Source: Daphnia pulex (lineage: Eukaryota > Arthropoda > Branchiopoda > Diplostraca > Daphniidae). From it: a DNA stretch of 64,000 bases. The notes beneath the pieces were generated by a model, which saw only the letters and a list, made by a program, of their open reading frames with translations, did not search any database and was not told the origin of the DNA. The position numbers were made by a program, and so were the translations under genes. The stretch's first letter is position 1. Each line of letters starts with the position of its first letter. This document shows positions 4,524-55,885 of this stretch, piece after piece. The stretch covers positions 22,501 through 86,500 of the forward strand of contig NC_060028.1 of assembly GCF_021134715.1 (NCBI RefSeq), given 5' to 3'.

Positions 4524-7500
4524 ATGGTTCAGTCAATGAAAAACACAAGGTCAGCCACCAAAGGCCACATAACAAGAGCAATAACCCGGATCAACGGATT
4601 TGCAAATCAAGTAATGGCCCAAGAAGATGTTAAAGAACTAGAAACCTTAGAAACAAGATTGAAAAGTCTCTTCGAAAGCTACCAAAGCGCAACAAAAGAA
4701 ATCAAGGAGAAATTAATAGCGACCAAGGCCGCGCAGGAGGAGATTGATGGGGATCTGGACACCTTTCTCCAAGTTCAAGATGAAGTGTCTGGAGCAAGAT
4801 CAATCATCAAGCAGAAGAAGCAAGAATGGTTGGACGACGTGAAAGAAAAGCAAGAGGCAAAGAAAGAAGAGGACAGAGACAAACGATTGTTAGCGCTCTT
4901 CCAACAACAGGCAACAAGCCAAGCAGCAAATCAAGCGGCAAATCAAGCAGCAAATCAAGCAGCAAATCCAGCAACAAGTCAAGCACAGATGGCGCAAATT
5001 ATTGCCCAAATCATGGCGGCCATTCCGGCACCTCCCGCGCCAGTAATCAACGTGACGGCAGCACCAGCCCCAGCTTCAGCCGTACAGTCGATACGATTGC
5101 CGCAGCGACAAATTAAGCACTTCAAAGGAGACGTACTGGAATGGACCCAATTCTGGGAATCCTTTAACGCAGCTGTCCACTCTTCATCTCTTTCAAACGT
5201 CCAAAAATTCGATTACCTCAAGGAATATCTTAAAGGTGAGGCGTACCTGTTGGTTAACAATCTTGAATTAACAGATGCGAATTACCAAGTCGCAATCGAC
5301 GAACTGAAAAGGATGTACGGGAAGACGGACGTTCTAATCGACGCGCACATTGAGAAACTGGATGCCTTGCAGCCCGTAAAGGACGGGAACGACGTTCCAG
5401 CTCTGAGGAGCTTCCAGCTGAATCTCCAATCGCACATTAGCGCGTTGGAAACGTTAGGAGTCCCCACAAGTTCCTTTGGCGGACTCCTCGGAGCAAGATT
5501 AATCAAATTAATTCCTACCAGGCTCCAACAAGAATGGGCAAAATCGCCAACAAACAAATCAACGGACATCGAGATGGTCATCAAATTCATTGGAGATCAA
5601 ATCGACGCGGCCGAAAGGTTCAACCGAATCAAAGGTGTGGAAAAGGAGAAATCGTCTCCAGCTCCTAAACAGCCCAAACCGGCAAATCCACAGCCGGCAA
5701 CAGCATCACAATTGGCAGTAGGAGCCAAAGCAAGTCCAGCTCCTCAGGTTAAATCCGCCTTAAAAAATAAAAACGTTAAATTTAACCCAAGTTGGATTGT
5801 GTGCGAAAGGCCCTGCATCTTCTGCAGCCAAATTCACTGGCCGACAAAATGTCCGAAAGGGCTGACGGAAAGGAAAAAGATAATCTTTGATTTGAAAAGG
5901 TGCGTCAACTGTTTTGGAGACAAACACGCGCTGAAGGATTGCACATCCGCCCGGAACTGCAACAAGTGCGGAGGGAGGCACCACACCGCTCTCTGCGACA
6001 AAGGAGACGTCAGAGTCACCAATCCCACAACAGCAGCAATAATCGTGGCCAGCGATCCAACTTTGACAACCACAGCCTGTGCAAGCAGCTTTGGACAATT
6101 GATGCTGAAAACGGCAACAGTCATCATCAGCGGCCAAAACGGTAACGAAACAAGAGCGATTTTATTTGCAGACGACGGAAGTCATCGTTCTTGGGTGCTG
6201 AAATCACTCTCATCGCAACTTAACATGAAGACAGTAGCGGTGGAAAACATCAGCACAAGAGTGTTTAAGAAAAAGGAACCCAACAAGCCCGAAATGACAA
6301 AAAACGTCGAAATGCAAGTAAGGGGCACCTGGCAAGGCGCCCCAAAAGTTACACTAATGGCTTTAGAATCGGATCACATTTCAGATACCGGCCCGTACGT
6401 AGGATCCGAATTTGCAAACAGCCTCTGGATCCAAAACGAAAAATTGGCCGACGACAGATTCGAGATGGCACACACCGAAGATCAGCCAATTGGAATTTTA
6501 GTCGGAATGGACCAGATGTTCCAGATCATGTCGAATGAAGCCGCCATACAGAGTCCATGCGGATTGCGCGCGTTTCAAACGAAACTCGGAAGAATGATTG
6601 CTGGACCATCTCAAGAAGCAAAATCGAAGACAGGAACTCAAGTAATCCAAAATTTAATTTTAACATCAAGTTACCCGATTCCACAGATTACGTCAACATT
6701 CGCGACAAGTAGCCAAAAAAGAAAAATCCTTTCAACTCAAGCAAACAAAACTCCGATGGAAAAGGAGACTGGAACGGCCAGTCCCCAAACTACGCCAATA
6801 GGAGCGTCATTCTCAGATGCCCCAATCGGATCCAGCGGAGAAGAAGATAGTAAATGGTTTGAGAAGGAAGAACAAGTTGCTGCTAATTTCGACCTTTCTC
6901 TTTTCTGGAAAATAGAAAATTTTGCGAACCTTGAAGGCGCTGATGCAGTGGAATCGGATGATCGCTTCGATTTCTTTGACGAAAAAATAACGAGATGGCC
7001 AGATGGAAGATACTGTACACCGATCCCTTGGACAACTGACAAGTGGAGACTTCAGAAAAATCTCCCGTTGGCCACCGGAAGAGTGGAAAGCACAATAACA
7101 AGATTGAGAAAAAATCCAGGAGACTTGGTGAATTACCACGCAGAAATCCAAAAGCTCATCGACAGCAAATTCGTCGAGGAGGCGAACATGGACTACGAAG
7201 AACTTCACACCTATCTCCCACATCATCCGATCTTCAGAGGCGACAAATCAACGACGAAAATCAGACCCGTCTTTGACGGAGCAGCAAAAACGAAATTTGG
7301 ACCAAGTCTGAACGACGTGTTGGAGACCGGACCAAATCTCAATCCCGATCTCCTATCAGTGCTATTACGCTTCAGAAAGTACGAGATTGCCTGGATCGCC
7401 GACATAGAAAAAGCCTTTCTAAACATCGCCCTGCAGCCGGAAGATGCTGAAGCAATCAGGTTTTTATGGCCCAGGGATCCAGCAGTGGCTGGATCGCCTC

Positions 7501-10500
7501 TTATTGCCTACAAGTGGAAGAGAGTGCCCTTTGGCCTTAGTTCTAGCCCCTTTCTCCTACGTGTTACAATTAACAAACATTTCAAATCACTAAAGTCTCG
7601 TTTTCCAGAAACTATTCAACAGCTGGAAGAAAGTTTGTACGTTGACGATTACCTCGGCGGAGCAAACAATTTATCAATCGCCAAGAAAAGAGTCGATGAG
7701 ACGGACGAGATCTTTAGTGACGCCCAACTCAACATGAGAAGCTGGGCAACCAACAACGAAGACCTCAAACAACACCTGAAGGAGAAAGGACTGTCGAATC
7801 AAGTCGTAGGCCTACTCTCCCCAGCCTTGGACGGCCAACAGAAGGTGTTAGGAATCCGGTGGGACACCGGATCCGATTCGTTCAAATTCAACCCAGCATC
7901 CATCATCCAAGCAGTAGAAGAAGTGGGATCGGAAATCACCAAAAGAAAGATACTCAGTATCTCGGCAAGGATTTTTGATCCAATTGGATTTTTATCTCCC
8001 ACTGTACTTTTGTTAAAGATTATTTACCAGAAGCTCTGGGAAAAGGAGATAGGTTGGGACCAAGCAGCGCCAGCCGATATCCAAAAATCTTGGAAGATAG
8101 TGATGACTGGTCTCGCCGATTTCACCGAACTACAAATTCCACGATGGATCGGACTATCCGAAAAAGTCACTTCTCACGAAATACACGTCTTCGGAGACGC
8201 TTCTGAAGCAGCGTATGGAGCCGTAGCCTACGCCCGACTCCAAAAAGGACAAGAAGATCCACTCATCATCCTACTGGCCAGCAAAACGAGAGTTGCACCC
8301 CTACCTAAGAAAAAAGTAACTTTACCGCGTTTAGAACTGCTGAGCTCACTTTTAGCCGTACGTTTAGGTGAAGTCGTAAAAAATGCAATGCAAGTCCAGT
8401 ATTGGAGAACTATCTACTGGTCAGACTCCTTGGTTGCACTAGGATGGATTAGAGGAGAGCCGAACAAATGGAAACCATTCGTCCGAAACCAAGTGGAGAC
8501 GATACGAAAATTTTCACAACCCGAGTGGTGGAGACACTGTCCAGGTCTCCAAAATCCGGCCGATCTTGCCTCGCGGGGAGCGCCAGCGCCAACGCTGGTA
8601 ACCTCAACTCTTTGGTGGAACGGCCCGATTTGGCTCAAAGGAGAAGAAACGGAATGGCCAGATTCTCCCAACGACCAAATTCCACAAACAATCCAGTCCG
8701 AAATGGAATCGGAAGCTAGGAGTACGACGGTCAGCACAACAGCAGCCATCGCAATTCCAACAGCCTCCGTCGACTGGAATCTCGACAAAATTTCCACCTG
8801 GAATCGACTGTTAAGACGTACAGCCTGGGTCTCACGATTCCTCAGCAGGAGTCAAAAGAAGCTCAGACCTCCCGGTCCAGAACGAATGGAGTCGATAAAG
8901 GCAATTGGACCAGATGGAAAAGGAAGTGGAAAAGTTATCCGGATTACAAGATTATCCAGAGAGGAGCTGGATGAAGCGGAACTAACGATCTACAGACAGC
9001 TCCAACGAGAGCGGTATCCTAAGGCGTTTGAATCGCTACAGTTAGACAACACAATCCAGCCCAAGGAGAAAATCGCTGCACTTTTTCCAATCTGGGACGC
9101 CAGAGACCGTCTCGTTCGAATCCATGGGAGAGTATCACTTGCCCTAAGAGATAGAAACATCGATCCCCCAATTTTGCTTCCTGCATCACATATAGTAATC
9201 ACTTTCTTAATTACAGACAAACACGAGTCACTACTACATGCAGGAGCAAAAGTAACACTATCCGAGTTAAAAGAAAAATTCTGGATAGTTAAAGGACGAC
9301 AGCAAGAACTAGCAGCCCCTCTTCCTTTAAACCGACTCAAACATGCGCAATCTTTTCACGTTACAGGAGTCGATTTCGCTGGACCACTGCTGTACAAACC
9401 AGCACAGCGAAGGAAGAAAAGGAAAGCTCCACCAAGCGTCCAGGATCCGACGCCAGCAGACGATCCAACTGAAGAGCGAATCGAGGAGCCACCCGCTGAA
9501 GGAGACGCTCCAATCGAAGCTCTAATCGTAGGCGAAGAGGATTCAGTCGAAGAAGATGTCGAAATCCAAGACATCTTAATAACAACAACTAAAGCTAAGA
9601 AAACGAACCATCTTAAAAGTTATGTTTGTCTTTTTACGTGTGCAGTCACTCGAGCGGTTCACTTGGAACTACTACCCGATATGACGGCGCGTTCCTTCTT
9701 ACTAGCCTTTCGAAAATTCGCAGCTAGACGAGGACCCGTCTCAGTGATGTATTCGGACAACGCGCAAACGTTCCGATGTGTCGACCGATTCCTGAGAACT
9801 ATTCACGCCGATCCCATCATTCAAGACTTTCTCGCGTCCAGAAAAACCCTTTGGATATTTTCCGCCAGCCTAGCGCCATGGTGGGGAGGATTCTGGGAAC
9901 GGATGGTGAGGAGCGTCAAGGATCTGCTGCGACGCTCCAACGGTCGAGCCTGCCTTGACTACATGGAACTGGAAGCGAGTTTAGCAGAAATCGAGAGCGT
10001 AATCAACGCCCGCCCACTCAGCTATATTGGGGAAGGAGCTGACGATCCACTTCCGATAACTCCTAACCAATTTCTAAACAACAGACGTTCTACTCGTGCC
10101 GATCCGGAGCCAGCCGTTAACTTGCTGGATCCTACATCGACCAGCATCGTACTACAAGAGATGGACAAGAACAGGAGGGAATATGTCGCTGACATCTGTG
10201 CTAGATTCGTCGACGATTATCTACTCCAACTAGACAACTTCCACTCCAAAGGAAAATCCGGAAGGAAGATCCGCCTAGGAGAAGTCGTTGTTATCCACGA
10301 CGAACACTCCAAACGACTCATGTGGTCTACCGGAGTAGTGAAGGAACTGATTCCAAGCCGCGACGGACTCATCCGTTCTGTCATGCTCAAGATTCCAAAT
10401 GGTAATTTAATTAATAGAGCCATTCAATGTCTTCACCCTATAGAGCTGCGAGAAGATCTCGCCGAAGACGTCGAAATTGGAAATCCGGAACCGATCCAGG

Positions 10501-10739
10501 AGCCGGAAGAGGATCCAAATCCAACTCTGCCAGAACCAGAAATCGATCTCGCTATCGGAGACGCTATGCCAGCTCCCGAAGAACCGGAAGACGTCGTCGA
10601 AGATGTCGAGCCGGATGCTACGGGCTCTGGTGGGGAGTGTGTTAGGAATATTCCATTCCAACAGACGACGACGAGATCAGGGCGCCGCACAACAACACCG
10701 GCGCACCTACGCGACTATTGCCTTGGGGGCCCCCGATAG
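4524..10739 (+). CDS. BEL/Pao Gag-Pol polyprotein (2071 aa)
   Basis: This is a single frame, as is usual for BEL/Pao. Parts in order, by rough residue: an N-terminal coiled-coil and Ala/Gln-rich stretch; a DUF1759-type Gag domain (about 195-390); cysteine/histidine zinc knuckles (425-492); an aspartic protease region (about 545-700); a Pao-type reverse transcriptase (about 880-1150, YVDD near 1039); an RNase H region near 1220-1340; integrase (about 1590-1850); then an acidic Pro/Glu-rich tail. The frame runs about 100 nt into the 3' LTR, so the last 33 or so residues are LTR-encoded. It reads as whole and was probably active recently. Confidence 0.93.
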   Translation: MVQSMKNTRSATKGHITRAITRINGFANQVMAQEDVKELETLETRLKSLFESYQSATKEIKEKLIATKAAQEEIDGDLDTFLQVQDEVSGARSIIKQKKQEWLDDVKEKQEAKKEEDRDKRLLALFQQQATSQAANQAANQAANQAANPATSQAQMAQIIAQIMAAIPAPPAPVINVTAAPAPASAVQSIRLPQRQIKHFKGDVLEWTQFWESFNAAVHSSSLSNVQKFDYLKEYLKGEAYLLVNNLELTDANYQVAIDELKRMYGKTDVLIDAHIEKLDALQPVKDGNDVPALRSFQLNLQSHISALETLGVPTSSFGGLLGARLIKLIPTRLQQEWAKSPTNKSTDIEMVIKFIGDQIDAAERFNRIKGVEKEKSSPAPKQPKPANPQPATASQLAVGAKASPAPQVKSALKNKNVKFNPSWIVCERPCIFCSQIHWPTKCPKGLTERKKIIFDLKRCVNCFGDKHALKDCTSARNCNKCGGRHHTALCDKGDVRVTNPTTAAIIVASDPTLTTTACASSFGQLMLKTATVIISGQNGNETRAILFADDGSHRSWVLKSLSSQLNMKTVAVENISTRVFKKKEPNKPEMTKNVEMQVRGTWQGAPKVTLMALESDHISDTGPYVGSEFANSLWIQNEKLADDRFEMAHTEDQPIGILVGMDQMFQIMSNEAAIQSPCGLRAFQTKLGRMIAGPSQEAKSKTGTQVIQNLILTSSYPIPQITSTFATSSQKRKILSTQANKTPMEKETGTASPQTTPIGASFSDAPIGSSGEEDSKWFEKEEQVAANFDLSLFWKIENFANLEGADAVESDDRFDFFDEKITRWPDGRYCTPIPWTTDKWRLQKNLPLATGRVESTITRLRKNPGDLVNYHAEIQKLIDSKFVEEANMDYEELHTYLPHHPIFRGDKSTTKIRPVFDGAAKTKFGPSLNDVLETGPNLNPDLLSVLLRFRKYEIAWIADIEKAFLNIALQPEDAEAIRFLWPRDPAVAGSPLIAYKWKRVPFGLSSSPFLLRVTINKHFKSLKSRFPETIQQLEESLYVDDYLGGANNLSIAKKRVDETDEIFSDAQLNMRSWATNNEDLKQHLKEKGLSNQVVGLLSPALDGQQKVLGIRWDTGSDSFKFNPASIIQAVEEVGSEITKRKILSISARIFDPIGFLSPTVLLLKIIYQKLWEKEIGWDQAAPADIQKSWKIVMTGLADFTELQIPRWIGLSEKVTSHEIHVFGDASEAAYGAVAYARLQKGQEDPLIILLASKTRVAPLPKKKVTLPRLELLSSLLAVRLGEVVKNAMQVQYWRTIYWSDSLVALGWIRGEPNKWKPFVRNQVETIRKFSQPEWWRHCPGLQNPADLASRGAPAPTLVTSTLWWNGPIWLKGEETEWPDSPNDQIPQTIQSEMESEARSTTVSTTAAIAIPTASVDWNLDKISTWNRLLRRTAWVSRFLSRSQKKLRPPGPERMESIKAIGPDGKGSGKVIRITRLSREELDEAELTIYRQLQRERYPKAFESLQLDNTIQPKEKIAALFPIWDARDRLVRIHGRVSLALRDRNIDPPILLPASHIVITFLITDKHESLLHAGAKVTLSELKEKFWIVKGRQQELAAPLPLNRLKHAQSFHVTGVDFAGPLLYKPAQRRKKRKAPPSVQDPTPADDPTEERIEEPPAEGDAPIEALIVGEEDSVEEDVEIQDILITTTKAKKTNHLKSYVCLFTCAVTRAVHLELLPDMTARSFLLAFRKFAARRGPVSVMYSDNAQTFRCVDRFLRTIHADPIIQDFLASRKTLWIFSASLAPWWGGFWERMVRSVKDLLRRSNGRACLDYMELEASLAEIESVINARPLSYIGEGADDPLPITPNQFLNNRRSTRADPEPAVNLLDPTSTSIVLQEMDKNRREYVADICARFVDDYLLQLDNFHSKGKSGRKIRLGEVVVIHDEHSKRLMWSTGVVKELIPSRDGLIRSVMLKIPNGNLINRAIQCLHPIELREDLAEDVEIGNPEPIQEPEEDPNPTLPEPEIDLAIGDAMPAPEEPEDVVEDVEPDATGSGGECVRNIPFQQTTTRSGRRTTTPAHLRDYCLGGPR

Positions 10740-30615: not shown

Positions 30616-30675
30616 TGACGACCCACTTGGGCGTTTGAATTCCTAAACCCCCACGTCTGATCTCCTAGATAAAAA

Positions 30676-31928
30676 ATGAAGTTCCTTCCGATTCTCTTCC
30701 TTCTGGTTGCCGTCTGCCTGGTTGTCGCCATGGTGAGTTGTTTTGACATTTCTCGTTTAAGTTTCAATCTGTTCCACGTCTCTTTTTTAATTGAACATAA
30801 TGTGGCGCATTATTATTTGATGATGCACGAAACAGGAGGCCCAAACAACCAAGAAACCAACACCTGCAACGACCACCAGCAAGACACCAACAACAACTGC
30901 CAAGACAACTGTTAAATCAACAACATCGAAGACAACGACAACCACCAAACCGTGTCCAGTAGTACCACCGTTAGAACGTCGTCCACTAAACCTGCCACGA
31001 CGACAACAACAGCCAAACGGACAACTGCCAAGACAACAACGTCAGTCAAAACAACCGCACGAACGACGACATCCCTGAAGCACCGCAAACAACATCGCAG
31101 AAAACAATCAGCACAAAATCCAACACCCCCGCCAGGACAAAAGCTGCACCAACAACAACGTCAATTCCTTCACCGGCTCTTTTTGATTGTTCAGTTTCCG
31201 ATCCAGGTATAATAACACGACGTGATTAAGCTGCAGTTGAAACTTGGATATTCAAATGTCTAATGAATCGAAATTTCTCTCGTTCAATTGCATCGCGGAC
31301 GACTGTACAAATCAATTGCGGACACCATCTAGCCTGCGGAACTATGTGCACCAATCTGACGTCAACGGGAGGTGTTGTCCATTCTCCCAATTTCCCCGGC
31401 GACTACGGGAATGATTAATTCAGGATTTGCGAAGTCGATCGTTGTCGTGCCAGCAGGAAAGAAAATCCAATTGACATTCACCATCTTTAATGTGGAGACT
31501 GACTACGGTCATGTTTATGTAAGTAATAATGCATCAAACTGTTGATTCTGTTGTTTGATTGATACAAAGTTAATTACTGTATTTCAGTATTATTCAGGGA
31601 AATGACTACACTTGTTTGACTTCTCAAGGTTAGCGACAGATACACGGATTTATTATATGGGCCAACCGGCCACGGGTCCGGAAGAACAATTCAGTCACCA
31701 CAGCATCCACCATCATGTTTATACAGTTTGTTACCTATGCCACTACTAAACCCAAACCCACAATCTATAATTGGCAGGTGACTTACACTGCTGTCGCGAT
31801 CAATAAGGTTTCCCAGTATTTAGATTCTAAACATTACCTTCAAACGCTGATTACCATTTTCTTTTTTATTCTTGAGCAGGGTAATACAACCACAACGACA
31901 TCTACGGTGCCAACGACTGTAAAATAAA
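30676..31928 (+). pseudogene. Thr-rich/CUB secreted protein, pseudogene
   Basis: Exon 1 (30676-30732) encodes a signal peptide, MKFLPILFLLVAVCLVVAM. The next exon encodes TTTSKTPTTTAKTTVKSTTS and further Thr/Lys repeats, but the Thr-rich reading moves through all three frames before reaching ALFDCSVSDP. The CUB exon (about 31330-31519) has an in-frame stop after GDYGND and another frame change before VPAGKKIQLTFTIFNVET. The last exon still ends IYNWQVTYTAV. AATAAA follows at 31923. Order and splice sites match the intact genes at 38875 and 45153, but only one CUB domain is present. Several independent breaks make a sequencing artefact unlikely. Confidence 0.8.
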
Positions 31929-32363
31929 TGGCTTTGCTTCTCGTTTGATCGACGCTGATCGACAGTCCTGATTAAATGAACCATTGAACAGGTGAGAAAC
32001 GTCCTGCAGCAGTCACAATGCCATCAGTGAACCACCATGACGCTCCCTGTGCTCTTTAACACTCAGCGTCAACTGCTTTATTATTAATTGGCCCAAAAAT
32101 AATTACCTAACTGTGTGCACTATAACTACAAGTAATAAACTCTTGTATTTAACCACTTATTCCCACCTTATTTACTGTGCCAAATCAACTGCTCTTTTCA
32201 AAGAATAGAGGCGACATTACACATATATGTGTCCCTTGAGTCTTTTAAAGCATTAGTGGTGCACACGCTGTTCGTCCACCATAGGGATAAGAAAATAGAT
32301 ATTAACAAAAGAGAAAGACGAATAAATAGATACTCAACAGCATGTCAGCATGGGAAAACGATG
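31929..32363. other. Spacer, nothing recognised
   Basis: This is the 3' flank of the CUB pseudogene and AT-rich DNA. No open frame has support. Confidence 0.5.
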
Positions 32364-32849
32364 ACAAAATTTAGAACGGGAAAAGGTTGGGAAAATATCT
32401 TCACTGCAGCGACCGCGTCGCCATGAATTTTGGTTATTTGCATAAATTATCTAGTTAATCTTATTATTTATATACTCAATCTCATTCAAAATTACTGCGT
32501 TATTTAATAAAAATAGACGGCCCGAATCGTTTTGTTTACTTATTTGTTTTCATCGGAGAGACCCATCTAACGGTCATTTTAATAGACTGAAATTTCACAA
32601 GAATAAGATTCTGTCTATAACGTAACGATTTTTCTAGGTAATAGATATTATAGCATTACAGCAATGAAATAATAATGAAATAATAATTTCATCAACTTCA
32701 CCAAATTTAATATAATTATCATTAAATAATTCATTAATTATATTTATTTCTGAAACCCTGCCTTCTCGCTGCCCTGGGCATAAGTGGCTTTAAGCCAATC
32801 ATAATCAAGACATTCTGAAACGTCCGCAAACACCCTACATAAACGAACC
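32364..32849 (+). promoter_or_regulatory. Duplicated histone-type promoter block, copy 1
   Basis: This block is about 95% the same as 35189-35650, the block directly ahead of the H3-variant gene. It shares ACGGTCATTTTAATAGACTG, a CCAAT motif (TAAGCCAATCAT near 32793) and CATTCTGAAACGTCCGC. The TATATAAA of the other copy is here TACATAAA (32836-32843). No histone follows; instead the coiled-coil gene begins at 33013. Confidence 0.75.
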
Positions 32850-33012
32850 CCCCATCAAGGGCTGATCCCGGCCTAGAAGTTATAGTATGCCATCAGTCAT
32901 GATTTGAAGTTACAAGTTCACTCAAAACTCTGAAGATTGAAAGTCTGAACTTGAGTTATTATTTCATTTTGAATTAGTTTAGTTTACGTATTTCAAGATT
33001 CAAATTTTTAAA

Positions 33013-34411
33013 ATGCCGAAAAGAACTGAGGTAAAAAAACAAACAAAAAAACACTTCCTCGCTAGTTGAAAATTGGTTCACTTTTTAAAATTCAGGTGGA
33101 CAAGTTAGGAAAAAAAGGGAAAGCAGATGCCAATGAAGTCAAACGAAAACAGTCCAAACCTACAGAATTAAAAGAAAAAATGCCGAAAAAAACTGCGGTA
33201 AAATAAAAACAAACAAACCAAATAAAACACTTCCTCGCTAGTTGAAAATTGGTTCACTTTTTTAAATTCAGGTGGACAAGTTAGGAAAAAAAGGGAAAAC
33301 AGGTACCAATGAAGTCAAACGAAAACAGTCCAAACCTACAGAATCAAAAGCAGAAGCAAGCAAAGCAGTCTTACCTGTTGAAGAAACATTGTATTCTCTT
33401 CAAATGGAGAAACGTTTGCTAGTCTCAAAATTGAAAAATGAGAAAAAAGAATTGTCTGAGATGAAAAGTGACTTAAAAAACTTGGAATTTCAATTATTGC
33501 GAAATCCTGAGAGGTAAAATTTTAATATTTTTTAACCGTTTGTTCAATAATTTTTACAATGTCTGCAGAAAAGAAGAAAAGTATTCAGAATTGTCAAAGA
33601 ATGTTATGATGTGGTCCGAATGTTTTGGCATGGTCATTGAACAAGCCAATTGTGTCAAAAAAGAGGACTGGGAGTGGCATATTCTAGGCACTGTTGATGA
33701 GTTGAAATTTGAACTCACTATAGTTTGTGCAAAACAAGTAAGCCAATTCACATCTTTATTATGCGATTATGTAATTATTCTTAACTTTGAGCTTGACACC
33801 TACTCACAGGAAACCTCTCTCAAGGGTTATGTAAAAAAATGCACTATTGAAACTTCTGTACCTTGCAAACAAGAGCTTGAGCAATGGTTTGAAAATGTTG
33901 AATGCAATGTTGAGCAGATCTTCAAAGTTTTGAAAGGTGCTGTTTTATTTATTTGTAGATTTTAGTTGTATCAAATATTAATGTAATTTGTAATACCCAG
34001 GTTATAGTGAAATGAATAATGCAAGGACAATTGGACTTGATACTTGCCAGGAAAAGTTTCCTTCTCTAATTTCTGTTTCTCAGCTTGAAATGTCGGAAGG
34101 TATCACTGTTGAACTGAGCAATGAGGATGCTTATTTTTATAAGATCCAATGGAAGCTTGAACCTTGTCCAAAAAATTTCGCGAAAGTGATTAATTATTGT
34201 CGCCTCGCATGTACTGAAGATGGTACAATTGTTATTCAGTTACACTTACGAATGAAAATAATTCTTTCTATTATATTTAGGTGAGAAATATCTGAAAAAT
34301 AAGACTGAACTGTCAAGTATCAAGAAAAAATTAAGTAGTTCTCCTGTAGAAATTATTCAACTTTTGGCCAGTAAAATCGACAGAGCTCTTCAGAAAGAAA
34401 AAAGTTTATAA
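33013..34411 (+). CDS. Lys-rich coiled-coil protein (336 aa), unknown; RWD-like C-terminus possible
   Basis: Exons 33013-33030, 33096-33197, 33272-33513, 33569-33737, 33810-33936, 34001-34222 and 34281-34411 join in phase. The basic N-terminus is internally duplicated: MPKRTE-VDKLGKKGKADANEVK recurs as MPKKTA-VDKLGKKGKTGTNEVK, and the intron is duplicated too (units begin at 33013 and 33180). A coiled coil (EKRLLVSKLKNEKKELSEM, residues about 95-120) precedes two beta-rich segments, one with DELKFELTIVCAKQ and one with DAYFYKIQWKLEPCP, then a helical end (IIQLLASKIDRALQK). The order coiled coil, then two short beta-rich parts with a WxxxxxP strand, recalls RWD-type kinetochore proteins such as CENP-P, but this is a guess. 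Promoter block copy 1 lies about 160 bp upstream. Confidence 0.8.
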
Positions 34412-35188: not shown

Positions 35189-35691
35189 ACAAAATTTAGA
35201 ACGGGAAAAGGTTGGGAAAATATCTTCACTGCAGCGACCGCGTCGCCAAGAATTTTGGTTATTTGCATAAATTATCTAGTTAATCTTATTATTTATATAC
35301 TCATTCAAAATTACTGCGTTATTTTTAAAAAATCAACGGCCCGAATCGTTTTGTTTACTTATTTGTTTTCATCGGAGAGACCCATCTAACGGTCATTTTA
35401 ATAGACTGAAATTTCACAAGAATAAGATGTTGTCTATAACGTAACGATATTTCTAGGTAATAGATATTAGCATTTCAGCAATAAAATAATAATTCCATCA
35501 ACTTCACCGACTTTTATTATCATTAAATAATTAATTAATTATATTTATTTCTGAAACCCTGCCTTCTCGCCGCCCTGGGCATAAGTGGCTTTAAGCCAAT
35601 CATAATTAAGACATTCTGAAACGTCCGCAAACACCCTATATAAACGAACCTCCACCACCTGACCACGTTATTGTGTATTCATTCGACGAAA
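35189..35691 (+). promoter_or_regulatory. Histone-type promoter block, copy 2, driving the H3 variant
   Basis: The CCAAT motif (TTAAGCCAATCAT, near 35591) and TATATAAA (35637-35644) are spaced as in a core promoter, with the ATG 48 bp after TATA. The block is nearly the same as 32364-32849, differing by small deletions and point changes. Only this copy keeps a canonical TATA. Confidence 0.8.
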
Positions 35692-36141
35692 ATGGCTCGT
35701 GAAAAGCAGACTGCTCGTAAATCTACTCTCGCGGCACAAATTGCTGCCATGAAGCAGGCCCAACTTGCCCGGAAGAAACTTACAGTAAAGGGATCGAAGC
35801 TTACTGTCCGTAAGACAGTAAAAGAGGAGGGTGCGAAGAAGAAGAAGGAGCGTTATCGTCCTGGTGCCCTTGCGTTGAAGGAGATACGTCGGTATCAAAA
35901 ATCGACGAATCTTCTTATCCCTAGACTTAGTTTTCAACGTTTGGTTCGAGAGATTGCCGAAGAATTCAAGTTGGATTTGCAATTTCAGAGCGGTGCCATT
36001 GGTACCTTGCAGGAGGCTAGTGAGGCTTATCTGGTGGGTCTTTTCGAAGACACCAACTTATGTGCCCTTCATGCTAATCGTGTTACCATCATGCCAAGAG
36101 ATATACATTTAACACGCCGTATACGAGGGTATAACAACTAA
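35692..36141 (+). CDS. Divergent histone H3 variant, intronless (149 aa)
   Basis: The core fold from [19 protein letters not shown] (about residue 54) to the end is plainly H3, with [21 protein letters not shown] and [20 protein letters not shown]. The tail is new. It keeps K4 and K9 in [11 protein letters not shown] (T3 is E) but then runs [20 protein letters not shown] and [20 protein letters not shown], so the usual K14, K18, K23 and K27-S28 contexts are gone and the protein is 13 residues longer than H3. Loop 1 has normal H3 length, which argues against CENP-A. The AIG at the start of helix 2 is the H3.3-type motif. K115 and K122 sites read N and R. Intronless structure, a TATA/CCAAT promoter and the stem-loop at 36174 make it look like a replication-dependent gene. 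It would act in chromatin; its specific role is unknown. Confidence 0.95.
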
Positions 36142-36173
36142 AATCCCATCTCAGACTACCAAACAAAAACAAC

Positions 36174-36189
36174 GGCCCTTATCAGGGCC
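36174..36189 (+). terminator. Histone mRNA 3' stem-loop
   Basis: GGCCCTTATCAGGGCC is a perfect 6-bp stem with a 4-nt loop, 33 bp after the H3-variant stop. It fits the GGYYCTTNTNAGRRCC histone stem-loop bound by SLBP. A purine-rich GGGAAAGGAATTG follows at about 36200-36212 and could pair with U7 snRNA. This implies 3' processing without a poly-A tail and S-phase-linked expression. Confidence 0.92.
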
Positions 36190-37100
36190 AACAGTTTAAT
36201 TGGGAAAGGAATTGCATCCATTCTAATTTATCTAAGAGGAGTTTTATAGAAAAAGAACCGCTGGTCGTTCATGAGATTTCGCACGTAAACATAATATATT
36301 CAGAGCTATAGAATATTCTAAGTATTCTATAGCGATAGCTCTGATATATTCTCAAAACAAAAAAAATATTCGCAAAATCGCTCCAAATCTGAACAAGTCT
36401 GTTTTTTTTTTTTAATTTGGCAACGTCGAGCAGACGAATGTTACACGTGCAAAAAAGAATACGAAAAATCGCCATCTCGTCGAGTTTACTTTACGACTTT
36501 ACTTTTGAAAACAGAAATAGTTAAAAGATGCATTATGAAAGAATCAATTATTGTTTGAATCTCTGGTTCTAGTTCAACATGGACTTGTAAGTTTTAAGAT
36601 TTTCAACTTCTTGTTTTGGTAGGTGAGAGTGGTAAACCCCTTGCCTGTGGTTATATTCCGTTTTGTTTCATCATCATATAAGACTAGATGGAGAAAAAAG
36701 TTTGTGAGCCACACTTGAACATACAGGAAATGCAAGATTGATGATTTCCACTTCCAGGTTACCAACTTTGATGAAAAGCATTTTTCTCTTTTCCCCGCCA
36801 GTCAGTCAACGGTGATTCAATATTTGTTCCCCATAAAGTTTCTTTGTGTTAAAACTAACATTGACAATTTTCTTATTCATAGGTAGAATTTATCAAAAGT
36901 ATAATCAAGACACCTTAAACAGTCAATCATAAGTTACCTAAATCGATTTTCCAAACTCAACAAGTGGTAAAAGCAGTAAAAGTAGGAATACCAGTCAGTG
37001 ACTGCCGATTCCTGAATGCTTAAACTAAAGTGTGTTGTAACTATACTATGTGCAAGAAAGAAAAGTTGTCGTATTTTCTAATACTTTTGAATCCAGTTTC
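36190..37100. other. Intergenic with a long imperfect hairpin
   Basis: At 36293-36350 an imperfect inverted repeat (AATATATTCAGAGCTATAGAAT against TATTCTATAG-CGATAGCTCTGATATATT) could form a cruciform of about 24 bp per arm. The rest is AT-rich. From about 36940 the diverged CUB-upstream block begins again. Confidence 0.6.
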
Positions 37101-37160
37101 ATCCTACCACGATGTAATAGGTGTAATGTAGTTGTAATATATATTACATCGTGATCCTAC
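37101..37160. mobile_element. 46-bp palindromic micro-insertion with 7-bp target duplication
   Basis: 37108-37153 has perfect 12-bp inverted ends (CACGATGTAATA and TATTACATCGTG) and is flanked by ATCCTAC on both sides (37101-37107, 37154-37160). Related blocks at about 30108 and 43938 read GTTTCATCCGACT-CAAGA straight through, giving empty sites. This indicates a very short MITE or MITE remnant. Confidence 0.75.
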
Positions 37161-38874
37161 AAAGGGAAACGAAAAGGGCCGTTCAGCTTTTCGACAAGTT
37201 GAGAGGGACCCAGAAAATTTTAACCCCAATAATCCCCTTAGTTTCTTCAGTCCGAACTCGTGTGGCGGGGAATAGATTTAATTCTTTAAATGCTCTCCAG
37301 TGTTAAGAATGTTAAAATTTATTTTGATGGGGTTTTGACCGTTTTGTATTGGTTTCCTTTTTAATAATTGAGGGGTTGTAGTTTTGTTTCTTTTTTTTTT
37401 TTTTATTATAGCCTTTCTTTTTGGCCGAATTGGAATTTTCGACGCAGGTGGTGGCCGCCGTGGATCACTGGATCCCCTGCCGGATGCGCAGCTTGGCGTT
37501 TCAGAACATGCTGGGTAAATAAATGTTTTTTTGTCTATTCGCTTTTAAAATTTCCCGTCCGTCCGTGCATTGAAATAGTTCTTTTGTGTCAATCATTTCA
37601 TTGTCTTTCCCTTTATTTGTTTTAGTGAAATTCCCATGTTGGGGCTGAGATAGTGTGGCGAGAGAAGCGGCCAGTGGCTGCCAATTTCTGTTGGCTCAAC
37701 CGGGTCCACTGATGAAATAGAAATAACAACTTATTATGTCCCAAACGCTTCCCGCCGAGCTGCCACTTGCCGTTGGGGGGAAATGATACGCTGCAATTAT
37801 ATCGACAAGTTCGTCCCCTTTTTGATCTATGAAGCGCTGGACCAACTGTCCATATTTAAGTATTTTATTTGAGAATTGTTTTTTTAAAAACATTTGTTTT
37901 CTTTTACAAAAATGACACCAAGGAAGATTGGAAGGGCTTTGTTTATTAACTAGGGTGGATTGGGACTACGTATTAGCTGTCGTTTATTATCTCATGCCGG
38001 ACAACATTAGAATAGAAATAATAGGCTTTCAACATGCAATGCAATGAAAAAGACAAGAGCTGAAATACCTACGAGATACGGACATAGTGCGAGCCCAATT
38101 TTGAAATTTGACGTCGGTCTCGAATGACTTGATTAGAACCTGCCACGCCTTTTTCTGTAGGTTGGATTAAACTTTAAATTCTACGAATTGAAGACGAAAT
38201 TAAAGAAAAAAGGGATTTTAACTAACCGTTTTTAAGTGTGTTGACCAATCAATGCGACCAAAAATGATTCGATTGTACAAGACCAAAAGTGTGCGGCTGT
38301 AGCCGACCGATTTGTGTCGACTACTGTCGTAATTGTCATTCGTTTGGTTCGAGTGGCAAGTTTAAATCAGAGGGTGGTGTCGGGAGGGGGTTGGAGCTCA
38401 TTAATCACCCGAGCGGAAAACAGACGCGTGCGTCATTTTTTCACCAGCAATGTAAAGCATCAGGTTTCTATAGAAATAAAAAAACAACTGCGAGAGCCAC
38501 ACACTTGTGGATTTTTTCCCTGTTGGACGACAAAGGGAATAGAGAATCAGCACGGGGCTTATCCTGGCCGGCCAGCAACAGAGAAACGCAGATGCTCATC
38601 GCAGACCTCATCATATTTTTGGGTGTAACTCTGCTCGTTTTAGTTTGTTCCCCAGTCCACCAATCAGAACTAGAGTTTGGGTTTTTTCTGGCTACGTGTC
38701 GCCATTTCGGTTGCCATTTTTCTGTCAACCTGGGACGACCATCCCAACTGTTTCTAACGTCCCTCCCTCCTTTTGTCCCCCGTTTCTATCGATAGGAAAA
38801 CTGAATACGACGGGCATTTAAATGACGACCCATTTCGTCGTTGGATTCATAAACCTTCGAACCTCCCGTAGAAA
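37161..38874. other. Upstream region of the 38875 CUB gene
   Basis: 37161-37480 continues the block shared with 30.1 and 43.9 kb (CTTTTCGACAAGTTG, CGACGCAGGTGG). From about 38290 the sequence resembles 44330-45120 upstream of the second intact CUB gene (TCCCAACTGTTTCTAACGTC, ATCGATAG), that is, a shared promoter region. Frames in this stretch are shadows of that non-coding similarity. Confidence 0.55.
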
Positions 38875-40642
38875 ATGAAGTTCTTTCCTATTTTCTTCCT
38901 TTTGGCTGTCGTCTTCCTTTTGGCTGTCGCTGCTGGGGTAAGTTGCGTCTCTGAATTTCTCGTTTGAGTTTCGATATTTAACCTCAAGCCCATTCCCACG
39001 TCCAAAACAGGAGGCCCTTGGCGAAATTTGCAATTCCCGGAAGACGACAACAAATCTGATAGCGAGACGAACTTGGCCCAGTCAAATTGCCTCGACGACG
39101 GCCAAACCGACAACCAACACGACGACGGCCAGTCCAAAGAGCACAACAACCGCAGAGTCATCCACTGTTTCGACGACAGCACCAACAACAACCACAACAA
39201 CTGCTGTGACAAGCACGACGAGCATCCCGTCGACAACCACCACAAAGTCCAGCAGCACCATGAGTTCAACATCAACAACAATGGCAACAACAACTCCTTT
39301 GCGGCCGATTTTTACATGCGCCGTTGATAAACCAGGTAATGAACATATGATTCGATTGCCCAACAAACATGAGGTTGAAACGACAAAGGAATCGAAATTT
39401 TTCTCGTTCAATTGAATCACAAATCTGACCGTCTCTACAAATCCATTGCTGGAGCGAAGCCTGCGGAAATATGTGCGGCGACGCGACGTCGGCGACTACC
39501 GGTGTTGTCCAGTCTCCCAACTTCCCCGGCGACTACGGCAATTATTATCAAAGGTATTGCGCTGTCACCATCACCGCCCCAGCCGGATGGATGATCCAAC
39601 TGAACTTCACCACCTTCAATGTGGAAACTGATGCGGCCTATGTTCAGGTAACGAAAAGAAATCGATACATTTCAAATGTTTAGCGTTCGATCCACATTTG
39701 ATTTGAAATTCTCAGATTGGTGGCGAAATGACTATAACCGGAAACGAAATTCCCGCTCTAGTCCCCGTAGCATCCGAGACCATGTTCATCAACTTTCTTT
39801 ACGCTGCCAGTAGTAAACCCACCAGCGCCGTATTCAATTGGCAGGCGACCCTTTCTGTGACGGTAAATTTCATTTTGCATCAACAATTCCTTCAACGATT
39901 ATTTTTTCCAGTTTCAAACGTCATTCAAACATTCCATTTTCTTAAACCTCGATAGAGCGACAGGAGTTCTTGTTCCGTTGGTAATCCAACATCAGGTAAC
40001 GCCCCCAATTATTTGATGAAATCACTTGAACTGTTAACTCGTATGAGGTAAAAAATGTCAAATGAACGAAATTGTTTTATTTTGTTTATTTGTCTCGTGA
40101 ATCTACGCGTCTGTGAATTTCAATTGCGGAAGCCTGCGGAACTATGTGCACCAATGCCACGTCAGCGGGCACCGGTGTTGTCCAGTCTCCCAACTTTCCC
40201 GGCGATTACGGCAATAAGCGAATGAATTCATGCTCCGTCACCATCATCGTGCCAATAGGAAAGAGAATCCAGCTGAACTTCAACACCTTCAATGTGGAGA
40301 CTAATGCAGCCGTTCTTTTTGTAAGTAAATCCATCGATTTGTATAAATGGAATTTCAGCATTTTAGTTCAAAGCCCAATTTTTTTTCTAGTGCACTTATT
40401 ATTTCAAATTTAGATTTTTAATTTTTAATTTTCACCGTATTCGGTGGAATAATTAGACTAATTATTTGACTTTTCAGGTTGGAGACAAAAACACGACTTA
40501 TTTGAACCTTGTAAGCGGAAACACAATTCCTGCAGCAATCACCACATCATCCAACGTCGTGTATATGATCTTTAATTCCTATGACAGTAGTAAACCCATG
40601 GACACCATATACAATTGGCAGGCGACTTACACTGCTGTGTAA
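38875..40642 (+). CDS. Secreted Thr-rich protein with two CUB domains (371 aa)
   Basis: Seven exons join in phase: 38875-38937, 39011-39335, 39460-39647, 39716-39862, 39956-39995, 40133-40320, 40478-40642. Exon 1 is a signal peptide (MKFFPIFFLLAVVFLLAVAAG). Exon 2 is a mucin-like Thr/Ser stretch of about 100 residues, a likely O-glycosylation region. Exons 3-4 and 6-7 each encode a CUB-like domain: CG-MC ... SAGTGVVQSPNFPGDYGN ... C-VTI ... IQLNF-TFNVET, then an ITG-EIPALVP half ending YNWQAT. The introns split both CUB domains at the same place, so one domain arose by duplication. CUB domains bind proteins or glycans outside the cell; the partner is unknown. TAA at 40640 and AATAAA at about 40743. 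This is the best-preserved member of the cluster. Confidence 0.88.
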
Positions 40643-41667: not shown

Positions 41668-42491
41668 ATGACACGCAAACCATGTTTCGTTTTTAATTGT
41701 AAATCTTCTTATAACAAAGAAAATGAAAGTCTTGCGTTTTTCCATCCACCGAAGTTGTGTCTAAATTCCTGGCAGGAAATTATTAAAAAGCCAGGACTCA
41801 CTTGCCAGTCCAGAATTTGCAGTATTCATTTTGAAGAGAACGACATACTCAAAGGGAGAGAAATTCAAGGCGTGTTTTACAGTTATCCGAAATGGAAATT
41901 AAAATCAGGTGCTCGGCCCAGTAAATTGCTAAGTATTCTCAAATTTTAATTATCCATGACAATGTTAAGTTATACTAATACTGCTAATTCTGTATGTTTC
42001 TAACAGGAAATGATGTCAGCGTACTCGAAAGACCTGCTGCAAAGAAGTATGTTCACAGTGATAGGTTTAAGTCACCATATCGAAATATAACAGCAAAGTC
42101 TAAAGCTGCTAATCCTAAGCTGCAGTTGGACAATCAATCATTTTTGTCGAATAACAACACCGATGTATTTATCCCATCACATGCAAAGAAGTCAACGTCA
42201 AATAGCATAGGTAAATTAAAAACTAAGTGTAATAAGATATTTTTTTAAAACATGACATGTTATGTTACAGCTATACACCAACTTGACGCTGAAAAAGGAA
42301 AAGTAAATGATATGGAAGCAGCTGAACCTGTGGCATTACCATGTGTAACAACAGAAGACATGTTCCAGGAACCTACTTCTGATACACTCCTACACATTCC
42401 ACCTGAAAAAGAACTACAATCTGAATCTGAATCTCAATTGAGAGTCCTTTTTTTTGTGACACACACCGTGCTGACTCGTATCCTTATTTAA
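41668..42491 (+). CDS. THAP-domain protein (221 aa), 3' end uncertain
   Basis: Exons 41668-41908, 42007-42210 and 42271-42491 join in phase. The N-terminus MTRKPCFVFNCKSSYNKEN ... SLAFFHPPKLCLNSWQEIIK ... CQSRICSIHFEEND is a C2CH THAP zinc finger (Cys6, Cys11 then CxxHF), a sequence-specific DNA-binding module shared with P-element transposase. The rest is Ser/Lys-rich, then acidic, with no transposase catalytic region seen. Exon 3 has a run of 8 T after GAGAGTCC. The annotated frame stops soon after it, whereas one frame over a long tail continues (MEFVQVRYHFESKRFQERNL ... NFKMAKLA), which looks like the genuine C-terminus. This implies a homopolymer error, an allele, or a real loss. Inverted 52-bp repeats stand about 150 bp upstream and 400 bp downstream. 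Confidence 0.8.
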
Positions 42492-53374: not shown

Positions 53375-55885
53375 ATGGCCTCGTTAGTTTCGGAAATTTT
53401 GATGTCAGCAGGTGAGATTGGTTGTTGTTGTTTCAGAATATACATGTACTAAGATTTAACTCCATTTTCAGGTCAATATGAGAAAAGAGACTTGCAAACG
53501 GAACTCGAGAAAGTCAAACGCAAGATTGATGATGCAAAATTCCAGGTTTCCAAATTTGTTGAACAGCACTACCTGGATTTCGATCCTTTGCTTGTTCACT
53601 CAAGAGAATTGGTCGAAACATCATCCAAACTCAGCGAAGAAGTAGAGGAACTAGTTGCCAAGGCAGAGACTGAAGTAAGTCCATATTGCATAAACTTTAT
53701 CATAATTTCAACAAACCTTTTCCGATTTGTGTTTGCAGCTCAAGTTTCAACTTGACAGCTCAACAAATGAGTTCAACTCCATCGGCAGTCAGATTAATGC
53801 TGCCAAGCTTCAAGTGCAGCTCCTGGAGAGGGTGTCTCGACTCCACACCATCCTGGAGAGTCTGAAACGGGTGACTGTTGAAGATCTCATTCTCTACGCA
53901 GAGGCAATAGCTGAAGCCGAATCTATCCTCGACGACGCTGAAGATCAAATCGACACTGAACTTGACATTTGGGGCAGTGTCAAGTTTGAAATTGAGTTGA
54001 ATAAAGACCAGCTCCTGAAACACTTGGAAAACAGCTGGAACACGGAAATTCAATGGATTAAAAAGGATTCAATTACACAACTCAAACTGAACCCAGACAA
54101 GCTGAAAGACGTGTTTCAAGCCTTGGCCATCGTAGGACAATTGGACAGGCCACTTTACGACTGGAGTTCCCGTCTGTTTGAAGATATCCTCGTCCCCTTG
54201 ACCAAGGCCGACACCGTCATCAGCATCGAAGAGAACCTCGAATTGACCGAAGGCGAACGACCCATCACCGAACTGGCTGAACTAGAAACAGCAGTGAAAA
54301 ATATCAGTTTGACATTCCAGCATCTGAACCAACACCTGGATTTCGAACTGAAAGACGTCCGGGTTTTGCAACTGGTTGGCCAGCAAATAGCTGACGAATT
54401 CGCCAAACTCTTTGTGAAAACCTGCCTGAAATCAACGTTGCCATCCAGCAGTTCTCTGCTGTCAAGTCCTGAATACGAAAAAGCCTTACAGATGTAAGTT
54501 CTAACTTTATTTTAAAAGCTAAAATAATTCAATTGAATAACAATTTTCGTTTCAGGGTTGTCGGTTTGGAACAGGAAATGATAGACAATGGATTTATGAC
54601 TGAACGAGTCATCGAGGAATTCTCCGTCAACGTCGACCTTTTCTTTGCCGACAAGCAGTGCCTGGAGAGTTTATCCCGAGCCCGCCAACTCATGTGCCTG
54701 GACCTGCACGACACGATTTACTTGAAGGACAACATCGAGCAGACGATAGTCGAGGAGGAGGAGAGGAACAACGCCGAAACGGCTCACTTGTGGAAGATGT
54801 TGAGCGAAGGCGGAATGGAAGTGAAATGGAGTCCCTTCCGTTTCCCCCACTGTCAAATCAGTCGCTCCACTCAGGATCTGATTGAAATGCTGACCAATCT
54901 GGTCCAGGAGGCTGGACTGAGTAGCGCCACCGAACGCAGTTCTGCTCGCCTCTTGTTCACTGTCCGATCCATTTGCGAGTTGTACGTTTCCGTCGTGCCG
55001 GAATACCATCGCGACGCCCTGGAGAAACTCCCTTTTCACGCTGCTGTGGCTCACAACAACGGCATGTACCTGGCCCATTCGATCCTGACGCTGGGCACTG
55101 GACATCTCATCAAATTGGTCCAGCAGAATGCCGTGCCCCTGATGGATTTGGTCGGAAAATTCAGGCAGTTGGCCGCCCACATTTTCCTGGAGCACATGAA
55201 ACGTCAGCGCGATCAACTCCTGGCCATCCTCAAAGAAGCTGGTAATCAATTAGTAAAACATTTTTAAACTTTTCGTTTCATTTAACTTTTGATTCAGGAT
55301 TCAACCGATTAGAGAGCGAATCGAAACTTCCGGCCAGTGTCGAAAAGGCTGGACGCCAAGTTTTGCACCAGCTCCGCAACTTGCAAAAGATTTGGCAGCC
55401 CGTTTTACCCCTGGAAGTTTACCTGAGAGCCATCGGCACCTTGTCCAACAGCGTCCTGGAGGAACTGCTACTCCGCATCACCACGATGGAAGATATTCCG
55501 GCCGCAGCGGCTCTACAATTGGCAGACCAGTGTCAAAACTTTACCAATACTTTACCCTTGCTCTTTGGCCCAGTCAACGTAAAATGAGTTCAAAAAGTTT
55601 CAACAGGAAATGAGAAATCTAATTTTAAATTTTTACACACAGGACGAAGAACCGGAAGACAAGACGGAAATGGTGGCACTAGTGCTTCAACACATTCACC
55701 TTTGGGCCAGATTTGAAGAGCTTCGACATTTACTGGGAGCCGGCCTGAGAGATATTGAAGGGCGTTGGTCATCCGGCAAAGGTCCACTGGCCGCCCATTT
55801 CGCTGCGGATGAAGTGAAACAAATGATTCGTGCCTTGTTCCAGAATACTGATCACCGAGCCGCCACTCTGTCCCGCATCAAATAA
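53375..55885 (+). CDS. RINT1: RAD50-interacting protein 1 / Tip20-family tether (734 aa)
   Basis: Six exons join in phase: 53375-53411, 53472-53674, 53739-54493, 54556-55241, 55298-55578, 55643-55885. The N-terminal third is coiled coil (ELEKVKRKIDDAKFQVSKFV; VSRLHTILESLKRVTVEDLI). The remainder is the helical RINT1/TIP20 domain, with NSWNTEIQWIKKDSITQLK, YDWSSRLFEDILVPL, FSVNVDLFFADKQCLESLS and the C-terminal end (LPLEVYLRAIGTLSNSVLEE, LADQCQNF). RINT1 is part of the NRZ/Dsl1 complex with NAG and ZW10, tethering Golgi-derived vesicles at the ER. Length is near that of the human protein (about 790). The stop is at 55883. The gene is intact; exon relics of it lie at 13.7 kb. Confidence 0.95.

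What the first reader, a model, noticed from the sequence alone, without database searches (positions are those of the whole stretch)
35692..36189. Histone H3 variant with a rewritten tail, an H3.3-type core and a replication-type 3' stem-loop
The 149-residue protein keeps K4 and K9 but replaces the tail after residue 11 with a longer Lys/Ala-rich sequence, removing the usual K14-K27 modification contexts. The core has the H3.3-like AIG motif, yet the gene is intronless and ends in a perfect SLBP stem-loop, a trait of replication-dependent histones. Loop 1 is normal, so it is not an ordinary CENP-A. I know of no described H3 variant with this combination.
Basis: partly seen in the sequence, partly recalled or inferred. 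Interest (0 to 1): 0.88.

Follow-up and report, generated by a model that had tools for sequence, protein, structure and literature searches.

The report
Histone H3 variant with rebuilt tail
An animal genome carries an apparently intact gene for an unusual histone H3 whose signalling tail is longer and largely rewritten, while the part that packs DNA is kept and the gene ends like those switched on during DNA copying; it looks like a new variant of a known kind of histone.

Summary
Window 35692-36141 (+) is one open frame for a 149-residue histone H3 (Pfam Histone E 7.7e-40; best solved match H3.3, E 2.4e-49). From R40 the core aligns with H3.3 without a gap, 75 of 96 identical. The head (residues 1-11) has one change, T3E. 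The rest of the tail is 13 residues longer, proline-free and lysine-rich. A perfect 6-bp stem 33 bases after the stop matches Rfam's histone 3' element (E 0.0012 in 12 kb, below the gathering score) and precedes a purine run. CCAAT and TATA motifs lie upstream.

Two corrections. The tail is not wholly foreign: RKxLxxK and RK(S/T) landmarks persist between insertions. An intronless H3.3 with stem-loop is published (Hydractinia H3.3.2). New here are the tail, T3E and the loss of several basic core residues.

Best reading: a lineage-specific, H3.3-derived paralog made in S phase whose nucleosomes are less stable and carry an altered modification code, perhaps in germline or embryo. Expression, relatives and species could not be tested. 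The upstream block is duplicated before a gene with a sub-threshold CENP-P match; a centromere role is the boldest, unlikely reading.

The parts
35189..35653 (+). Upstream block of the H3-variant gene, ending just after the TATA motif; a second copy lies at 32364-32852
   Evidence: blastn of the window against itself: 91.0% over 489 columns, 4 gap openings; the repeat finder families D1, D2, D4, D9
35596..35600 (+). CCAAT motif
   Evidence: sequence; also present in the second copy
35639..35644 (+). TATAAA (in TATATAAAC), 53 bases before the ATG
   Evidence: sequence; reads TACATAAAC in the second copy
35679..35685 (+). TCATTCG, fits the PyCATTCPu cap motif of histone genes (motif recalled); 40 bases from the TATA start, so the true start site is uncertain
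   Evidence: sequence
35692..36141 (+). Coding sequence with stop: 149-residue H3 variant
   Evidence: Pfam PF00125 E 7.7e-40; PDB H3.3 E 2.4e-49
35692..35727 (+). Conserved head [12 protein letters not shown] (T3E is the only change)
35728..35850 (+). Expanded tail, residues L12-E52 (41 residues; the matching stretch of H3 has 28)
35851..36138 (+). H3 core from R40 (aN helix and histone fold), 75 of 96 identical to H3.3, no gap
36174..36189 (+). Histone 3' stem-loop GGCCCT-TATC-AGGGCC
   Evidence: RF00032 25.6 bits; pattern; RNA fold contains it
36202..36211 (+). Purine run GGGAAAGGAA, candidate U7-binding downstream element
   Evidence: 10 of 10 purines; the role is inferred

Best explanation
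It is a working, lineage-specific histone H3 gene. Its coding part descends from an H3.3-type gene and its transcript is organised like a replication-dependent histone gene: short leader, no intron, and a stem-loop with a purine element in place of a poly(A) signal. The mRNA would be made and stabilised in S phase through SLBP and U7. The protein would pair with H4 through an intact histone fold and be deposited at replication. Losing basic residues (R63P, R83Q, K115N) would loosen the DNA wrap, and the longer tail keeps the K4 and K9 contexts while changing K14 to K36 signalling, with T3E removing the T3 phosphorylation site and mimicking its charge. The use is probably a specialised chromatin state in germline or early embryo. 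Shown: intact frame, fold-level similarity, stem-loop, promoter motifs, substitutions. Inferred: expression, deposition, stability, tissue. My odds: real coding gene about 0.85, S-phase type expression about 0.7, altered nucleosome stability about 0.5, germline or embryo use about 0.4.
For: Full-length H3 similarity with an ungapped core. Stem-loop at the expected place and the only Rfam match at E<=1 in 12 kb. Purine run 13 bases after the stem, and no AATAAA or ATTAAA starting between 36101 and 37499. CCAAT, TATA and cap motif in order (that pattern was written after seeing the sequence, so its 0 of 100 shuffles is not a fair test). Core changes are more conservative than neutral change would give: BLOSUM62 sum +6 against simulated means of -9 to -14; P 0.0055 with stops allowed and 0.012 to 0.021 with stops excluded. 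Codon 90 is GGT, three changes away from the ATG of an H3.2-type Met90, which favours an H3.3-type ancestor. Precedents: Hydractinia H3.3.2 and Oikopleura H3t (passages).
Against: No relative, transcript or second species was seen. The stem-loop is under Rfam's gathering score and its loop is UAUC. TATA to cap motif is 40 bases, longer than usual. An open frame after this much change is not rare by itself: 13% of neutral simulations kept it. The tree of nine cores resolved nothing (0 of 6 inner branches supported). DNA-contact roles of R63, R83 and K115 are recalled, not computed. The simulation assumes an H3.3 ancestor and codons chosen by me.
Confidence: 0.6

Rival explanations
1. A young pseudogene or relaxed duplicate of an H3 gene that still has an open frame but no function.
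For: 13% of neutral simulations reach 21 core changes without a stop; the tail has diverged strongly; third-position GC is 0.43 over the gene, so no strong codon bias is visible; no expression evidence is available.
Against: Core replacements are too conservative for neutral drift (P 0.0055 to 0.021); both tail indels keep the frame; promoter motifs, stem and purine run are all intact.
Confidence: 0.15
2. A replication-independent variant: the stem-loop is a relic and the gene is expressed outside S phase, like an H3.3 replacement histone.
For: H3.3-type GAIG motif; stem-loop below the gathering score; Oikopleura H3t.3 is an intronless orphan gene with a degenerate stem-loop (PMC3156773, passages).
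Against: The stem is perfect rather than degenerate, a purine run follows, and no AATAAA or ATTAAA starts between 36101 and 37499.
Confidence: 0.12
3. A divergent centromeric H3 (CenH3) or mitosis-specialised H3.
Against: Loop 1 has no insertion and identity to H3.3 (75/96) exceeds that to human CENP-A (53/94), Cse4 (59/96) and two recalled CenH3s (50/96, 63/94); Q68 and the H3.3-type a2 helix are kept; the CENP-P match is below cutoff (E 0.015) and no better than shuffles against human CENP-P (113 of 500).
Confidence: 0.06

Closest known systems
Hydractinia echinata H3.3.2 (PMC5011920, passages seen)
   Same: H3.3-type protein; the specific section and the table give one exon, a 3' stem-loop and S-phase expression at a single locus (one overview sentence of the same paper swaps H3.3.1 and H3.3.2)
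   Different: Its protein is identical to that paper's other H3.3; no rewritten tail and no loss of core basic residues
Oikopleura dioica H3t.1, H3t.2, H3t.3 (PMC3156773, passages seen)
   Same: Lineage-specific divergent H3s; H3t.1 and H3t.2 keep the stem-loop; H3t.3 is an intronless orphan gene
   Different: H3t.3 has three tail and ten fold substitutions, with no large tail insertion reported in the passages seen; these genes were shown to be testis-enriched, which is untested here
Histone H3.3 (PDB 4hga and others)
   Same: Core 75 of 96, IG at 89-90, S96
   Different: G87, longer tail without S31, stem-loop gene type
Human H3.Y (sequence recalled)
   Same: Divergent H3 with H3.3-type AIG and K122R
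   Different: 68 of 96 in the core; different changes
CenH3 / CENP-A
   Same: Divergent tail, some aN-a1 changes, altered C-terminus
   Different: No loop 1 insertion; lower identity

Membership tests
Histone H3 | Histone fold with H3-type aN, loops and a2-a3, no gaps | tested here: met
   PF00125 E 7.7e-40; H3.3 E 2.4e-49; ungapped core, 75 of 96. The single-sequence structure model failed (pLDDT 46.5)
H3.3 replacement histone | AAIG at 87-90 | tested here: inconclusive
   GAIG: 3 of 4
H3.3 replacement histone | S31 in the tail | tested here: not met
   The region is replaced: [14 protein letters not shown] in place of RKSAPSTGGVKKPH
H3.3 replacement histone | Poly(A) signal, no stem-loop | tested here: not met
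   Stem-loop present; no AATAAA or ATTAAA starting 36101-37499
Replication-dependent histone gene | 3' stem-loop shortly after the stop | tested here: met
   36174-36189, RF00032 E 0.0012 in 12 kb, but below the gathering score
Replication-dependent histone gene | Intronless coding sequence | tested here: met
   One frame from ATG to stop
Replication-dependent histone gene | Purine-rich downstream element | tested here: inconclusive
   GGGAAAGGAA at 36202; no U7 RNA of this species to pair it with
Replication-dependent histone gene | Sits in a histone cluster | tested here: not met
   tblastn of H3, H4, H2A and H2B found no other histone gene in 64 kb; H1 was not searched
Replication-dependent histone gene | S-phase, non-polyadenylated mRNA | not testable with these tools
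   No RNA data held
CenH3 / CENP-A | Longer loop 1 | tested here: not met
   No insertion, against 2 to 6 residues in the four CenH3s compared, two of them recalled
CenH3 / CENP-A | Distinct phylogenetic grouping with CenH3 | tested here: inconclusive
   Tree of nine cores unresolved
Testis-specific H3 | Male germline expression | not testable with these tools
   No expression data

The most novel reading that the evidence does not exclude
An H3.3-derived, S-phase-made H3 specialised for mitotic or centromeric chromatin: T3E acts as a built-in mimic of Haspin-phosphorylated T3, the aN-a1 changes and the rewritten C-terminus converge on CenH3, loop 1 stays canonical, and the promoter region is shared with an inner-kinetochore gene.
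Probability: 0.06. Interest if true: 0.85.

Novelty: new variant of a known kind. Interest (0 to 1): 0.5.

Why it matters
H3 tails are among the most conserved protein stretches in animals. A functional H3 that keeps K4 and K9 but rebuilds everything between residues 12 and 39, carries a fixed negative charge at position 3, and is made in S phase would be a natural experiment on which tail marks chromatin can do without, and on how far the tail can change while the fold is kept.

Tried and rejected
Own-genome search: no genome held. Relatives: one scan each of viral contigs (23 pattern stretches, none a relative) and genome contigs (162 stretches, none a relative); these collections hold viruses and prokaryotes, so this says nothing about other animals. 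Structure prediction from the single sequence failed (pLDDT 46.5, pTM 0.29), so no fold search was run on it. The maximum-likelihood tree of nine cores gave no supported branch. CenH3 considered and set low: no loop 1 insertion. CENP-P identity of the neighbour considered and left open: Pfam E 0.015, 15.4 bits against a cutoff of 25; no CENP-P chain in the PDB search at E<=10; pairwise score against human CENP-P reached by 113 of 500 shuffles locally and 91 of 500 globally. Papers: ten searches; the strings [10 protein letters not shown] and GGCCCTTATCAGGGCC occur in 0 papers; the listings seen for Daphnia and crustacean histone H3 terms showed no such variant, but they were capped (2 to 20 rows) and cover open-licence papers only. 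The passages seen of a Daphnia magna meiosis paper (PMC5023733, 12 of 24 places) speak of modified H3 (H3S10ph, H3K9me3), not of H3 sequence variants.

Full report
WHAT IS THERE. The frame 35692-36141 (+) encodes 149 residues. Pfam finds the core histone family (E 7.7e-40) and only sub-cutoff matches to two other histone-fold families (CENP-T_C and CENP-S). Among solved structures the best of 179 distinct matching sequences (60 shown) is H3.3, E 2.4e-49. tblastn with typed H3, H4, H2A and H2B finds no other histone gene in the 64 kb, so it is a solitary gene in the window.

THE PROTEIN. Against H3.3 the first 12 residues (Met included) are identical at 11 of 12; the change is T3E. The core from R40 to the end is ungapped and identical at 75 of 96 (73 of 96 against H3.2): T45A V46L R49K E59N R63P K64R P66S Q76E D77E T80L R83Q A87G A91T I112L K115N K122R Q125H A127T E133Y R134N A135N. 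K56, K79 and Q68 are kept. R63, R83 and K115 are recalled as DNA-contacting residues; I computed no contacts. Before R40 the tail has 52 residues against 39 (both without Met), 13 Lys against 8, 4 acidic against 0, no Pro against 3, net charge +13 against +12. The alignments place 9- and 4-residue insertions and keep RKxLxxK and RK(S/T), so the tail is expanded and rewritten but not replaced wholesale. The K9 context QTARKST is intact; K14 is gone; the K27 context becomes VRKT; in the alignment the K36 position is still Lys in a changed context.

THE GENE. Upstream lie CCAAT (35596), TATAAA (35639) and TCATTCG (35679), then ATG at 35692. A pattern of the three occurs once and in 0 of 100 shuffles, but it was written after seeing the sequence. 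TATA to cap motif is 40 bases start to start, longer than usual. The stem-loop lies 33 bases after the stop codon. It is RF00032 at 25.6 bits, below the gathering score of 34: the default scan of the whole window lists nothing, the 201-base scan gives E 2e-5, and a 12-kb scan gives E 0.0012 with no other family at E<=1. A loose stem-loop pattern occurs once against 0.06 expected. Folding of 36142-36220 contains the hairpin, z -2.61, with 2 of 200 shuffles as stable. GGGAAAGGAA follows 13 bases after the stem, and no AATAAA or ATTAAA starts between 36101 and 37499.

IS IT A WORKING GENE? No orthologs or transcripts could be obtained. A weaker internal test was made. Starting from an H3.3 core and mutating without selection to 21 core changes, the summed BLOSUM62 score of the changes is -14.2 on average, and 0.55% of 4000 runs reach the observed +6; 13% of runs keep the whole frame open. 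With stops excluded, three transition shares give means of -9.2 to -11.2 and P 0.012 to 0.021 (3000 runs each). This speaks for past purifying selection on the core. It assumes the ancestor and part of its codons, and says nothing about the tail or the present.

ORIGIN. Residues 87-90 read GGT GCC ATT GGT. From H3.2-type Met90 (ATG) the last codon needs three changes, from an H3.3-type glycine none to one, so an H3.3-type ancestor is simpler. The tree of nine cores could not decide (0 of 6 inner branches supported). Identities: H3.3 75/96, H3.2 73/96, H3.Y 68/96 (recalled), yeast H3 66/96 (recalled), Cnp1 63/94 (recalled), Cse4 59/96, CENP-A 53/94, HTR12 50/96 (recalled).

NEIGHBOURHOOD. The 465 bases upstream of the gene, up to just past the TATA motif (35189-35653), recur at 32364-32852 (91.0% over 489 columns), ahead of a gene that I modelled by eye as seven exons, 33013-34410, 336 residues. 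In that copy the CCAAT motif is kept and TATATAAAC reads TACATAAAC. Which copy is the donor is not shown. That gene's best Pfam match is CENP-P at E 0.015, 15.4 bits under a cutoff of 25; the PDB search at E<=10 shows no CENP-P, and the score against human CENP-P is reached by 113 of 500 shuffles. I treat CENP-P as a lead only.

WHAT IT WORKS LIKE. Hydractinia H3.3.2 is an H3.3 encoded by one exon with a 3' stem-loop and S-phase expression, and its authors cite only a sea urchin precedent (PMC5011920, 12 of 25 places seen; one overview sentence there swaps the two H3.3 genes). Oikopleura has three testis-enriched H3s, two with a fully conserved stem-loop and one intronless orphan gene with a degenerate one (PMC3156773, 12 of 28 places seen). 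These show that divergent or H3.3-type H3s can use replication-dependent gene ends. The present gene differs by its enlarged tail, T3E and the core changes. CenH3s are recognised by a longer loop 1 and a highly divergent tail (PMC4359364, passage); the first is not met here. A Daphnia pulex Scm3/HJURP candidate is published (PMC13322267, passages), so if the window is from Daphnia a separate CenH3 is to be expected; this was not tested.

VERDICT. A real, unusual H3 variant gene; new variant of a known kind. Mechanism (S-phase supply, looser nucleosome, changed tail code, perhaps germline or embryo) is inference from anatomy. Species not verified: the window is 40.7% GC with intron-bearing host genes and a BEL/Pao element, which fits an animal but does not name one.

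Noticed in passing
32364-32852 and 35189-35653: Duplicated upstream block, 91% over 489 columns, in front of two unrelated genes; possible promoter capture by the gene at 33013-34410.
   Followed up: partly
33013-34410 (+): Seven-exon gene (336 residues, modelled by eye) with a sub-threshold Pfam match to CENP-P (E 0.015); its 5' coding region is tandemly duplicated (33010-33174 and 33177-33350).
   Followed up: partly
4524-10739 (+): Uninterrupted 2071-residue BEL/Pao-type retroelement frame (Peptidase_A17, RVT_1, DUF1759, DUF5641).
   Followed up: no
53727-54497 (+): Piece of a Zw10-like kinetochore/trafficking protein (Zw10_middle, E 7.5e-10).
   Followed up: no
41668-41949 (+): THAP-domain frame (E 7.6e-11).
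   Followed up: no
30670-31930 and 38869-39566: Partly repeated stretches (repeat finder D5-D7, 82-84% in the matched pieces), which look like copies of one gene; the stretch near 31370 resembles CUB-domain coding sequence by eye only.
   Followed up: no
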